A stretch of 64,000 bases of DNA, taken from Comamonas fluminis. GTDB taxonomy: Bacteria; Pseudomonadota; Gammaproteobacteria; Burkholderiales; Burkholderiaceae_C. A program made the position numbers and the translations under genes. The stretch spans positions 2,555,501-2,619,500 of the forward strand of contig NZ_CP066783.1 of NCBI RefSeq assembly GCF_019186805.1, in the 5' to 3' direction. This document shows, one piece after another, positions 49,517-53,420 of the stretch. Within the stretch, counting starts at the first letter, position 1. The number at the start of each line of letters is the position of its first letter. The notes beneath the pieces are model-generated. The model searched no databases and had not been told where the DNA came from. It worked only from the letters and a program-made list of their open reading frames with translations.

Positions 49517-50284
49517 TCAGCGCACTGGCAAAAACTGCATGAATGGCCCGGCGATCAAGCCCTGCCCATAGCCGATGACGGCGCGGCGATAGCGCTCTGT
49601 GGTGTAGCTGGCGATCAGGTCCAGCCTGCCAATGATTTTTCCCATTTCCCGCTCAAAGCTGAGGTTGCGCTCGCTGTCTGCTATCTGATTTGATAGCAGC
49701 AAGGGCTTGCCATCTGTGGCGCGGCGCGAGTTGAGAATCCAGTTGGCAATTTCCAGATTGCGCGCTGCATTGAAGACATGCTGCGGGTCCAGACCATCGA
49801 TCAGGGTGAACGAGGTACGCCCGCCGTGCGCAGTAATCAGCATATCGCCCGCCGCGTAGATAAAAGCCGCAATGCGGTCGCCGGCAAAATCGGGCTGCAG
49901 CGCCAGTGACAGCGCAGCCACATCGCGCTTGCCCTGAAGCTCATGCCAGGGCTGGCGCTCGAGCACGGCAATGCGCACATAGGCCACGGCGGCTTCCCGA
50001 CTCTCGGCTGTGGCACGCCACTGGCCGGGGTTGCGGCGGTAGAGCTTGTCCATCAGCGCAAACAGACTGTCCAGGTTTTCCTTCATGGCCAGCGTGGCCA
50101 TGCGGTTGCTGTCGGATTGCAGCAGCTCACCACCGCGAAAGCCCTCCCCTTCCACCTTGCCGTGGTTGGTGGGCGCGCTGGAGCAGCCTGCCAGCAGCAC
50201 GCTCAGCAGCGCAGTCGCAAGCACAGCCCGCAGGCTGGGATGGCTTAACGCGGTCTCATGGCAAATGGCATGGGCTGCAGACAT
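49517..50284 (-). CDS. lipoprotein of unknown function
   Basis: A 255-residue protein with a signal peptide ending in lipobox LLAGC. The mature part is helical, with the segments RMATLAMKENLDSLFALMDKLYRRNPGQW and DMLITAHGGRTSFTLIDGLDPQHVFNAARNLEIANWIL. Probably outer-membrane anchored. I do not recognise the family. Part of the coding sequence (49681-49708, giving LLLSNQIADSE) coincides with an arm of the palindromic repeat. It converges on the cupin gene, 1 bp apart. Confidence 0.75.
   Translation of the reverse strand: MSAAHAICHETALSHPSLRAVLATALLSVLLAGCSSAPTNHGKVEGEGFRGGELLQSDSNRMATLAMKENLDSLFALMDKLYRRNPGQWRATAESREAAVAYVRIAVLERQPWHELQGKRDVAALSLALQPDFAGDRIAAFIYAAGDMLITAHGGRTSFTLIDGLDPQHVFNAARNLEIANWILNSRRATDGKPLLLSNQIADSERNLSFEREMGKIIGRLDLIASYTTERYRRAVIGYGQGLIAGPFMQFLPVR
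49681..49708. repeat. dispersed repeat arm within a lipoprotein gene
   Basis: CTATCTGATTTGATAGCAGCAAGGGCTT matches the A/T end and GATAGC core of the repeat family and is read in frame on the minus strand. Confidence 0.45.
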
Positions 50285-50375
50285 TGGGCAAACATAGCAG
50301 CAGATGCCGCTTGTTTGCTGGGGTTTGCGCTACAGATTTGTTATCAATCGTGAATCACGAGCCGTGCAAGCCTAG

Positions 50376-50559
50376 GGTCTGTTGAGAATTGAGCGGGGTC
50401 GCGAAGGATTCTGGCCGCTTGCCAATCTAGGCGCGTGACGCCGTGCGGGTGCCTACCCGATGTATCCCCATAACTGGAACGCAACAACGAGTGGCGGGCG
50501 GCCAGATTCCTTCCCTTCGGGTTGCAGCGACAGGATCCCCGCCTAAATCTCAACAGACC
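50376..50559. mobile_element. 184-bp MITE-like element with CTAG target duplication
   Basis: Terminal inverted repeats GGTCTGTTGAGA / TCTCAACAGACC bound the element. CTAG occurs directly outside both ends (50372-50375 and 50560-50563). It has no transposase frame. The right-hand CTAG contains the TAG stop codon of the MocR gene. The 57-bp element at 52835 shares both outer ends. The target pattern resembles that of some IS5-family elements, which is inference. Confidence 0.78.
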
Positions 50560-52062
50560 CTAGCGCCGCAACTGCGCCAAAAGCTGCTCCAGCAGCTTCC
50601 AGGGCGCTGCCTGATCGGCCATGGCCACGGGCACACGCAGCATGCTGCTGCTGACTTGCTGAGGCGAAAATAGTACGCCCGGAGCCAGCAGCAGCTCGCT
50701 GGCCGCCGCCTGCCTTGCCAGCACTTCGGTATCCACACCGCAGTCCACCCAGGCAAAGGTTCCCGCAAGAGGTTCGTGATGGGCATGGCAGCCCAGCGTT
50801 TCAAGCTTGCGGAGGCAGCGGTTGCGGGCCCTGTCCACGCGCTCGCGCAGCCGGTCCACATGCTTACGGTAGGAACCATCGGCCAGGATGTGGTGCACGA
50901 TCTGCTCGGCAGGCAGCGACGAAGTCAGCCCTGACAGCAGCTTCATATCGGTGAGCCGGTGCACATATTCAGGCCTGGCCGCCACATAGCCCACACGCAG
51001 GCAGCCGGACAAGGTTTTGGAGAAGCCGCCCACCAGAATCACGCGCTGCAGCCTGTCCATCGCCGCCAGCCGCAGCGGCATGCTGCCCAGAAAATCGGCA
51101 TAGGTATCGTCTTCAACCAGCAGAAAATCGTGCCGCTCGGCAATGCGCAGCACCTCGTGGGCCACACCTGCGGACAAGCTCAGGCCCGTGGGGTTGTGCA
51201 CCACGGTGTTGAGGATGAAAAGCCGGGGCTTGTGCTGCTGGGCCAGAGACTCCAGCGCCGCAACGTCCGGCCCACCGGGCAGGCGCGGCACGCCCACCAC
51301 GTTGACGCCCATGAGCTTGAGCCGCCCGAAGATCAGAAACCATGCGGGATCTTCCACCAGCACGGTATCGCCAGGCTTGAGAAAGCAGCGCACGATGAGA
51401 TCAAGACCCTGGGTAACGCCGCCCACGGTCATCAGATTCAGCTCCGGGTGAGCGGGAACCTCTTGCGCCTGCAGTTGCGATGCAATCTGCTGGCGCAGTG
51501 GCAAATGGCCTTGTGGCTGGCCGTAGCTCAGCAGGCTCAGCTCCGCCTTGGGACCCTGGCGGGTAATGGCCCGCATGGCGCTGGTTATCAGGCCCTGATC
51601 CATCCAGTGCGCAGGCAGGCAGCCCGCGCTGCCCGTGCCGTCCCCTCCCTCTCGGAAAATGCCACGCAGCAAGTAGGCCGTATCAAACTCCAGAGACTGC
51701 GCCGCAGCCGCCTGCATCTGCGCCGCAGGCTCGACCACACGGCGCTGCGCTGCCACATAAAACCCGCTGCCGCGCCGCGACTGAAGCAGCCCTTGCGCAG
51801 CCAGCCGGTCATAGGCCTGAACCACCGTATCACGGCTCACGCCTGAGGCCTGCGCCAGCGCCCGCACCGACGGCAGGCGCATACCGGCGCGCATTCCGTG
51901 GTTGCGAATCAGGGTGCCGAAATGCTCCACCAGTTGCTCTGCCAGCCCGATGGCGCTGGAGCGCATGGGCTGCCAGCCCATGGCGGCGGCTGTAGTGCCA
52001 GAGGTCTGGGCTGCAGAGGCGGATTCGGATTCGGATTCGAGCTCGGGCTTGGCGTCCAGCAT
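50560..52062 (-). CDS. MocR-family regulator (GntR helix-turn-helix fused to aminotransferase-like domain)
   Basis: 500 residues: an acidic Ser/Glu repeat N-terminus, then a GntR winged helix (GMRLPSVRALAQASGVSRDTVVQAYDRLAAQGLLQSRRGSGFYV) and a fold-type I aminotransferase domain (LMTVGGVTQGLDLIVRCFLKPGDTVLVEDPAWF; NPTGLSLS; PLP Lys in GGFSKTLSGCLRVGYV). Such proteins use PLP or an amine effector to control genes. It diverges from a LysE-type exporter with a 154-bp gap and probably regulates it. Its stop codon abuts a MITE-like element. Confidence 0.92.
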   Translation of the reverse strand: MLDAKPELESESESASAAQTSGTTAAAMGWQPMRSSAIGLAEQLVEHFGTLIRNHGMRAGMRLPSVRALAQASGVSRDTVVQAYDRLAAQGLLQSRRGSGFYVAAQRRVVEPAAQMQAAAAQSLEFDTAYLLRGIFREGGDGTGSAGCLPAHWMDQGLITSAMRAITRQGPKAELSLLSYGQPQGHLPLRQQIASQLQAQEVPAHPELNLMTVGGVTQGLDLIVRCFLKPGDTVLVEDPAWFLIFGRLKLMGVNVVGVPRLPGGPDVAALESLAQQHKPRLFILNTVVHNPTGLSLSAGVAHEVLRIAERHDFLLVEDDTYADFLGSMPLRLAAMDRLQRVILVGGFSKTLSGCLRVGYVAARPEYVHRLTDMKLLSGLTSSLPAEQIVHHILADGSYRKHVDRLRERVDRARNRCLRKLETLGCHAHHEPLAGTFAWVDCGVDTEVLARQAAASELLLAPGVLFSPQQVSSSMLRVPVAMADQAAPWKLLEQLLAQLRR

Positions 52063-52216
52063 GGCTTGGCTCCAACAGGGTCAAGAAGAGTCAGGAAGAA
52101 AGTGTCCGGGTCATGAAAGCAGGCCAGCTCATTAACTGGCCTGCACAAGTGTACTGCTACTGTACTGATTTCAGCCATTAGCATGGAGCACACAACAAGC
52201 CCCGACCAAGACTGCC

Positions 52217-52834
52217 ATGTCCTATCTGACCACCTCCACTGCTTTCATCCTGCCGCTGGCCATGTTTGCCTTTGTCAGCTCCGTCACGCCCGGCCCCAAC
52301 AATGTGATGCTCACCGCCTCCGGTGCCACCTTTGGCTACCGCCGCAGCGTGCCGCATATGCTGGGCATCTGTCTGGGCGTGGTGGTGATGGTGCTGCTGA
52401 TTGGCGCAGGCCTGGGCAAGCTGTTCGAGGCCGAGCCCCGCATTTACACCCTGCTCAAATACGTGGGCGCCGCCTATCTGGTCTGGCTGGCCTGGAAGAT
52501 TGCGCTGTCTGGCAGCGTGGACCAGGGCAAATCGGGCAGCCAGCCCTTCAGCTTCTGGCAAGCCGCCGCCTTTCAGTGGGTCAACCCCAAGGCCTGGATC
52601 ATGGCGGTGGGGGTGGTGGCCACCTACACCCCGCGCGAGGGCTTTTTCATGAACCTGCTGCTGTCAGCACTGGTGCTGGGCCTGGTCAACTACCCCAGCA
52701 TCAGCGTCTGGACCCTGTTTGGCAGCACCGTAGGCCGTGCGCTGCGCACGCCTCAGGCCTTGCGCATCTTCAATGGGGTGATGGCGGGGCTGCTGCTGCT
52801 GTCGCTGGTTCCGATTTTCATGGAGCATGTCTAA
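52217..52834 (+). CDS. LysE/RhtB-family amino-acid exporter
   Basis: A 205-residue membrane protein with about six hydrophobic segments. The family N-terminus SSVTPGPNNVMLTASGATFGYRRSVPHMLGICLGVVVMVLLIG and AFQWVNPKAWIMAVG are diagnostic. It should export an amino acid or a derivative. Its TAA stop lies within the CTAA target duplication of the 57-bp element that follows. Confidence 0.92.
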   Translation: MSYLTTSTAFILPLAMFAFVSSVTPGPNNVMLTASGATFGYRRSVPHMLGICLGVVVMVLLIGAGLGKLFEAEPRIYTLLKYVGAAYLVWLAWKIALSGSVDQGKSGSQPFSFWQAAAFQWVNPKAWIMAVGVVATYTPREGFFMNLLLSALVLGLVNYPSISVWTLFGSTVGRALRTPQALRIFNGVMAGLLLLSLVPIFMEHV

Positions 52835-52891
52835 GGTCTGTTGAGATTTAGGCGAGGATCCTTCGCGACCTCGCTCAATTCTCAACAGACC
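52835..52891. mobile_element. 57-bp MITE-like element, internal-deletion relative of the 50376 element
   Basis: The same terminal repeats GGTCTGTTGAGA / TCTCAACAGACC, with CTAA on both sides (52831-52834 and 52892-52895). Reverse-complemented, its left 30 bp match the left end of the 184-bp element and its right 25 bp match the other end. The join falls at a GGAT shared by both ends. Confidence 0.8.
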
Positions 52892-52904
52892 CTAAACTTG
52901 GCGC

Positions 52905-53420
52905 ATGCCCTATGAGATACGCCCACTGACCGAGTCCGACCTTCGCAGCTATCGCGCCCTTCGCCTGCAGGCTTTGACGGAGTGCCCCAGCGCCTTTGGT
53001 GCCACGCCCAGCACCGAACAGGCACTGGAAGATGCGCAGATACTGCATCGCTTTGGTGGCGGGCCCGGTCAGATCATGTGGGGCGGATTTGATGAAGATG
53101 ACAAGCTCTGCGCCACGCTGGGCATGTACCGCGATACCGGGGAAAAGACGGCGCACAAAGGCCATCTCTTTGCCATGTATGTGAGCCTGCAGGCGCGTGG
53201 TCAGGGCTTGGCCCGTCGCCTGCTGGAGGTAGCCATCGTACACGCCAGCGCTCTGCAACTAAGGCAATTAATGCTGGGATGCAATACCACCAACCACAAT
53301 GCGCTACGTTTATATGAGCAAGCAGGTTTTCAGACCTATGGCCGAGAGCCTGCTGCTCTGTATGTCAACGGGGAGTTTTTCGACGAAGTGCTGATGGTGC
53401 GCCCGCTGGCATCCATCTGA
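52905..53420 (+). CDS. GNAT-family N-acetyltransferase
   Basis: A 171-residue GNAT: N-terminus YEIRPLTESDLRSYRALRLQALTECPSAFG, CoA loop VSLQARGQGLARRLLEVAI, and end NHNALRLYEQAGFQTYGREPAALYV, typical of the RimI/YitI type. Substrate unknown. It starts 13 bp after the 57-bp element, which may therefore affect its promoter or leader. Confidence 0.9.
   Translation: MPYEIRPLTESDLRSYRALRLQALTECPSAFGATPSTEQALEDAQILHRFGGGPGQIMWGGFDEDDKLCATLGMYRDTGEKTAHKGHLFAMYVSLQARGQGLARRLLEVAIVHASALQLRQLMLGCNTTNHNALRLYEQAGFQTYGREPAALYVNGEFFDEVLMVRPLASI

What the first reader, a model, noticed from the sequence alone, without database searches (positions are those of the whole stretch)
50372..50563. MITE-like element whose target duplication contains a stop codon
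Seen: 184-bp element with GGTCTGTTGAGA terminal repeats and CTAG on both sides; the CTAG on the right holds the TAG stop of the MocR gene. The second copy (52835) sits in CTAA that holds the TAA stop of the LysE gene. Insertion at CTAR stop codons leaves the protein intact, which would be a gentle way to spread.
Basis: partly seen in the sequence, partly recalled or inferred. Interest (0 to 1): 0.7.

Follow-up and report, generated by a model that had tools for sequence, protein, structure and literature searches.

The report
Mini-transposons parked on stop codons
A family of tiny, gene-less jumping DNA pieces in Comamonas-type bacteria sits, in about half of the copies examined, exactly on the stop signal at the end of a gene, where it rebuilds the signal and leaves the protein unchanged.

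Summary
Both window copies are miniature inverted-repeat elements (MITEs) sitting on the stop codons of a MocR-type gene and a LysE-type gene. One correction: in 60 copies with TA on both sides, the flanks fit duplication of TA (2 bp) within a YTAR target. The element then starts one base further out (GGGTCTG...CAGACCC) and its terminal G completes the stop (TAG in 35 of 36 listed gene ends).

The window genome holds 19 copies; 11 lie on a stop codon, against 2.3 expected from non-internal YTAR sites (p 1.5e-6). In 17 other genomes, pooled, it is 18 of 27 (expected 4.1, p 1.2e-9). The pattern is not universal: G028 gives 1 of 10, G046 0 of 4, and an autonomous IS with the same left end 1 of 13. 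Relatives show empty sites at both window positions.

The body, about 262 bp, folds into a covarying three-arm structure (30 elements).

Best reading: MITEs mobilised by IS5-family, IS427-type transposase, whose target motif contains two of the three stop codons. Copies persist there because insertion rebuilds the stop and spares coding and promoter DNA. Whether insertion itself is also biased is open. Eight answered literature searches (five lists capped) showed no report of such stop-codon residence.

The parts
50375..50560 (.). MITE copy 1 (186 bp, internally deleted relative of the 262-264 bp form)
50375..50387 (+). left terminal repeat GGGTCTGTTGAGA
50548..50560 (-). right terminal repeat, inverted
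50373..50374 (.). TA duplication, left
50561..50562 (.). TA duplication, right; first two bases of the MocR TAG stop on the minus strand, the G coming from the element
50560..52062 (-). MocR-type regulator gene (GntR + aminotransferase domain), 500 aa, stop TAG at 50560-50562
   Evidence: the 7 relatives read lack the element; TAG at this place in 6 of 7, TGA in one; only one (L104) reads YTAG
52834..52892 (.). MITE copy 2 (59 bp, minimal form; first base A where the other copies have G)
52832..52833 (.). TA duplication, left, inside the LysE TAA stop
52893..52894 (.). TA duplication, right
52217..52834 (+). LysE-type exporter gene, 205 aa, stop TAA at 52832-52834
   Evidence: empty site with one CTAA in 6 of 7 relatives read, TTAG in the seventh
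52905..53420 (+). GNAT acetyltransferase gene; in several relatives its ATG follows the LysE stop by about 10 bp, here copy 2 lies between

Best explanation
The elements are non-autonomous MITEs, about 262-264 bp when complete with deletion forms down to about 45-59 bp, moved in trans by a transposase of the IS427 group of the IS5 family. The transposase uses YTAR, duplicates TA and leaves GGGTCTG...CAGACCC. Because TAR is a stop codon in one frame, and because the element begins with G, insertion at a YTAR stop rebuilds a stop (TAG) at the same place: the protein is unchanged and the element becomes the start of the 3' untranslated region. Insertions in coding DNA, in promoters or in terminators just downstream are mostly lost, so surviving copies pile up on stop codons. 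Shown: element, target, TA pattern, empty sites at four positions, stop residence well above site availability in two of four MITE data sets, and an autonomous IS with matching ends in relatives. Inferred: trans-mobilisation by that IS, recoding of TAA to TAG, and survival rather than choice as the main cause of the bias.
For: TA/YTAR table over 60 copies. Empty sites: LysE CTAA in 6 of 7 relatives, L041 CTAG stop in 4 of 10 relatives, L075 site CTAG in 8 of 13 empty loci. Stop share 11 of 19 in G000 and 18 of 27 in 17 other genomes, against 10-23% of non-internal YTAR sites by site type in the matching samples. Of 33 genes ending at those 29 sites, 32 have a Pfam domain. IS with the same left end, YTAR flanks and a two-ORF IS5 transposase, 13 copies in G048. 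IS in G012 whose two ends resemble the two unequal MITE ends. In print, IS427-group elements of Paracoccus are 832-865 bp, mostly with 2-bp repeats, and the text names IS427-group elements among those with two overlapping ORFs (PMC3281130, passages).
Against: G028 (1 of 10) and G046 (0 of 4) show no excess. Within 20 bp of gene ends the exact stop is favoured only about 3.4-fold (p 0.01), and survival alone must explain why sites a few bases on are rarer. In G000, full-length copies at stops are not clearly more diverged than the others (identities). No partner IS with the same exact ends was found in the window's own genome, so mobilisation is not shown. Some copies lie in genes: L042 in G000 (a called ORF) and L080 and L251 in the pooled set. 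At the MocR site only 1 of 7 relatives shows YTAR; at L032 two aligned relatives lack both element and YTAR.
Confidence: 0.6

Rival explanations
1. Insertion itself is biased towards gene 3' ends or stop codons, for example through transcription termination, convergent transcription or a DNA feature beyond YTAR.
For: Stops are favoured over other YTAR sites within 60 bp downstream (11 of 14 in G000 and 15 of 19 in the pooled set, against null shares of 38% and 36%). Sites shared by two convergent stops hold 4 of 46 copies in these two sets, against 2 of 1,338 sampled sites.
Against: The autonomous IS with the same left end shows 1 of 13 at stops. Flanks of 60 targets show no strong motif beyond YTAR and the same G+C as other CTAG sites (0.564 against 0.571). 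G028 and G046 lack the bias.
Confidence: 0.2
2. The elements are kept at gene ends because they do something there: a strong hairpin just after the stop could protect or end transcripts, much as REP-type repeats are thought to do (recalled).
For: The folded structure is conserved: 58 of 94 pairs have changes on both sides in 30 elements, and 0 of 500 shuffles reach the observed values. Minimal copy 2 keeps a strong hairpin.
Against: At the four sites checked, relatives mostly lack the element. Palindromes can also keep their arms matched by template switching, so covariation does not prove function (recalled).
Confidence: 0.12
3. The excess is an artefact: genes truncated by insertion at a TA make a new TAG from the element's G and are mistaken for natural ends.
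For: L251 looks like such a case, an AsnC-type HTH fragment ending after 51 residues.
Against: Empty sites carry the stop already (LysE, L041). 32 of 33 genes have a Pfam domain, many of them reaching near the C-terminus. The base after the right TA is G or A in 59 of 60 copies, so the uninterrupted codon was TAG or TAA.
Confidence: 0.05

Closest known systems
IS5 family, IS427 group (e.g. IS1248, ISPpa6 of Paracoccus; PMC3281130, passages seen)
   Same: about 0.8 kb, two ORFs, mostly 2-bp direct repeats; the G048 IS fits, with DUF4096 and DDE domains
   Different: the window elements carry no transposase; stop-codon residence is not mentioned in the passages seen
MITEPsy1 of Pseudomonas syringae (PMC3189936, passages seen)
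   Same: small, IS5 origin suggested, duplicates CTAG or YTAA
   Different: 100 bp, reported as a 4-nt duplication; two of six copies interrupt loci; no stop-codon bias mentioned in the passages seen
Enterobacterial RU / ERIC-type repeats (PMC2759123, PMC2229807, passages seen)
   Same: hairpin-forming MITE-like repeats with TA duplication
   Different: different sizes and hosts; fusions that extend or alter genes are described in the passages seen, not insertion at the stop
MITEAba12 (PMC6382973, passages seen)
   Same: MITE tied to an IS by its ends
   Different: 111-114 bp, 9-bp duplication, gene-disrupting insertions described

Membership tests
MITE (non-autonomous, IS-derived) | short, no transposase gene, terminal inverted repeats | tested here: met
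   the one 1074-bp copy holds a different nested IS
MITE (non-autonomous, IS-derived) | target duplication and empty sites in relatives | tested here: met
MITE (non-autonomous, IS-derived) | ends shared with an autonomous IS | tested here: met
   G048 and G012; none with the same exact ends found in own genome
MITE (non-autonomous, IS-derived) | mobilisation in trans | not testable with these tools
   needs a transposition assay
IS5 family, IS427 group (partner IS of G048) | IS5-type transposase | tested here: met
   NF033580 above cut-off for both ORFs; PF13340, PF01609
IS5 family, IS427 group (partner IS of G048) | about 0.8 kb, two ORFs, 2-bp repeat | tested here: met
   816 bp between the GG/CC ends, 818 with terminal G and C; ORFs of 130 and 128 aa; TA; compared with PMC3281130 Table 2 as shown
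IS5 family, IS427 group (partner IS of G048) | programmed frameshift joins the ORFs | not tested
   only two ORFs in succession were seen
Described RNA family | match to an Rfam model | tested here: not met
   0 matches at E<=1 in window 49900-53400

The most novel reading that the evidence does not exclude
A widespread, structurally conserved MITE superfamily of the Comamonas family has become specialised for life on stop codons: either its insertion is steered to TAR stops at gene 3' ends, including stops shared by convergent genes, or its hairpins serve as portable 3'-end modules for host genes.
Probability: 0.25. Interest if true: 0.8.

Novelty: new variant of a known kind. Interest (0 to 1): 0.55.

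Why it matters
It suggests how a transposase target motif that contains two of the three stop codons can give a mobile element a harmless niche: insertion rebuilds the stop (by inference, turning a TAA stop into TAG). It makes an open question testable, namely whether element distributions in compact genomes come from where elements land or from where they survive. It also adds a structured repeat family to Comamonas-type genomes: matches at E<=1e-6 in 25 of 299 family genomes, 18 of 141 genera, with two candidates scored per genome.

Tried and rejected
The 1074-bp copy (L034) looked like the autonomous parent, but it is a MITE with a different IS5-type IS inside (ends GGGCGTGTCATC/GATGACGGGCCC, CTAG on both sides). 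It is not the partner.

A 4-bp CTAR duplication was assumed until and then set aside for 2-bp TA. The statistics were redone with corrected site types; the conclusion did not change.

Codon-model calls put long antisense ORFs over five gene ends (L083, L253, L256, L267, L271). These were re-assigned to stop after the translations and Pfam; the antisense rivals were judged by eye only. L251 was moved to gene-internal and L252 (48 aa, no domain) to intergenic. The uncorrected pooled count was 15 of 27. In one search the pooled null also counted stops called by either of two codon models.

This is not a full census. Only loci returned by the calls, with recognisable ends, were used. Dropped before counting: 4 of 16 fetched G028 loci without clear ends (L218, L219, L221, L222); 1 of 14 fetched G048 loci, which is not this IS (L237); L079 and L081 (same insertion as L075); L259, L262-L266, L268, L269, L329, L331, L334, L335 (no clear ends); L085-L098 (mostly other repeat families or partial matches). 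Duplicate loci of one place were counted once. Of the 84 copies kept, 11 had no YTAR on either side and were not in the tests (2 of 12 G028, 9 of 36 pooled).

The pooled null is 20 stretches from 11 genomes, 10 of them among the 17 genomes with counted copies; 7 of the 17 were not sampled. It is not matched copy by copy. The nulls of G046 (60 kb), G048 (120 kb) and G028 (140 kb) are small.

Age as a cause was looked at only roughly. All 6 copies under 200 bp in G000 are at stops, against 5 of 13 longer ones (p 0.018), but full-length copies at stops are not clearly more diverged.

Full report
WHAT IS THERE. The window holds two copies of one mobile repeat. Copy 1 lies at the 3' end of a MocR-type gene on the minus strand, copy 2 between a LysE-type gene and a GNAT gene. 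The ends GGTCTGTTGAGA are exact in both. The genome, G000, has 4.9 Mb; the closest named homologues of the MocR gene are in Comamonas (81-86% protein identity for the seven best). It has 31 exact ends and no match of the reversed control pattern. Reading them with a BLASTN list gave 19 copies: ten of 262 bp, two of 273 bp, one of 1074 bp with a nested foreign IS, and six short forms of 45 to 184 bp. Lengths are between the GG ends.

THE DUPLICATION IS TA. Of 84 copies from several genomes, including 13 IS copies of G048, 60 have TA on both sides. The base next to the element is G on the left in 59 of 60 and C on the right in 60 of 60. The outer bases are C or T on the left in 57 of 60, and G or A on the right in 59 of 60. 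A duplicated 4-mer would make both flanks equal; they are equal in 35 of 60 and differ in 25, where the outer base varies while the inner one stays G or C. So the target is YTAR, TA is duplicated, and the element runs GGGTCTG...CAGACCC. The terminal G therefore completes the stop of a gene entering from either side. In 36 listed gene ends the codon is now TAG in 35 and TAA in one, which is window copy 2.

EMPTY SITES. At the LysE site, 6 of 7 relatives read have one CTAA at the stop and no element; the seventh ends in TTAG. At the MocR site 7 of 7 lack the element, 6 of 7 have TAG and one TGA, but only one has the YTAG target. At L041, 10 aligned relatives lack the element and 4 of them have the CTAG stop. 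At the L075 site, filled in three genomes, 13 loci are empty and 8 of them read CTAG. At L032 two aligned relatives lack both the element and YTAR; at L036 the 16 alignments end before the site.

STOP CODONS. Genes were called with a codon model on 464 kb of G000 and on samples of other genomes. In G000, stops make up 10% of non-internal CTAG sites, 15% of CTAA/TTAG sites and 17% of TTAA sites; in the pooled sample 13-23% by type. Against this, 11 of 19 copies in G000 sit on a stop (expected 2.26 among 18 non-internal; p 1.5e-6). In 17 other genomes, found through, it is 18 of 27 (expected 4.12 among 25 non-internal; p 1.2e-9, after Pfam-based corrections; 15 of 27 before). Results against: G028 1 of 10 (expected 1.06), G046 0 of 4 (0.38), and the autonomous IS of G048 1 of 13 (3.82). 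All MITEs together: 30 of 60, expected 7.8 among 57 non-internal. Of 33 genes ending at the 29 sites in G000 and the pooled set, 32 have a Pfam domain; the gene at L044 has none. Gene-internal copies: L042 in G000, L080 and L251 in the pooled set, two IS copies in G048.

POSITION IN DETAIL. Within the stop plus 60 bp downstream, the stop itself holds 11 of 14 (G000) and 15 of 19 (pooled, uncorrected), against null shares of 38% and 36%. Against the first 20 bp alone the preference is 3.4-fold with p 0.01 (corrected counts). Four of 46 copies sit on stops shared by two convergent genes (L039, L043, L326, L327), against 2 of 1,338 null sites of the same two groups. Flanks beyond YTAR show no strong motif.

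PARTNER IS. G048 carries 13 closely similar IS copies, 816 bp between the GG/CC ends, with the same left end, YTAR flanks and two ORFs. The ORFs match IS5 family models (NF033580 above cut-off for both; PF13340 and PF01609). An IS in G012 has one end like each of the two unequal MITE ends. Published IS427-group elements of Paracoccus are 832-865 bp, mostly with 2-bp repeats (PMC3281130, passages). In the window's genome I found no IS with these exact ends, and the G048 IS matched only one 147-bp stretch at 70%, so its copies look stranded.

BODY. Thirty aligned elements of 259-273 bp share a three-arm structure: a stem of the two ends and two large hairpins. Of 94 pairs, 58 show changes on both sides; 95.9% of cells pair, against 79.6% in shuffles and 34-43% in slid controls. 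The terminal repeats themselves vary between copies while mostly staying matched. This could mean selection for a folded form or arm-to-arm correction; it is not proof of function.

HOW IT LIKELY WORKS. Steps shown: YTAR target, TA pattern, rebuilt stop, excess on stops in two of four MITE data sets. Steps inferred: movement by IS427-type transposase, and loss of insertions elsewhere. The IS copies of G048, alike and so probably recent, show no excess; this fits survival better than choice. The exact-stop and convergent-stop excess leaves room for biased insertion.

LITERATURE. Searches listed no paper on MITEs residing on stop codons or on this repeat; five of the eight lists were capped below the number of papers found. 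Passages of eight papers were seen; none was read whole. YTAR for IS5 is stated in PMC10359306 (passages). Absence from these searches is not proof of absence.

Noticed in passing
L034:1614-2687 (own genome C2:282113-283186): A MITE copy carries a different IS5-type IS nested at an internal CTAG (ends GGGCGTGTCATC/GATGACGGGCCC).
   Followed up: partly
L273 (own genome C2, around 3876-3877.5 kb): Two different IS5-type IS abut, sharing one CTAG, beside an ORF that looks like an IS481-type transposase (name recalled).
   Followed up: no
window 50560-52062; L077, L267, L323: Four of the stop-resident copies lie on stops of MocR-type (GntR + aminotransferase) genes, in four genomes. Noticed after the fact, not tested against a null.
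   Followed up: no
L086-L089, L092, L094, L095, L097, L098: Repeats with other ends (e.g. AACGTGTTTACGATC, GGCGTGTTCACAT) share the inner 62-bp module of this MITE (query 158-219), as if bodies had swapped ends.
   Followed up: partly
L034:1641-1740 against the L035 element: The two halves of the element resemble each other in inverted orientation (73% over 100 bp), so the two inner hairpins may come from one duplicated module.
   Followed up: no
window 52834-52904: Copy 2 separates LysE from the GNAT gene, whose ATG follows the LysE stop by about 10 bp in several relatives; a hairpin of -35 kcal/mol now lies between them and may affect coupling.
   Followed up: no
L080, L251: Apparent gene-disrupting insertions: a short ORF that looks like a membrane protein, and an AsnC-type HTH regulator ending after 51 residues.
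   Followed up: partly
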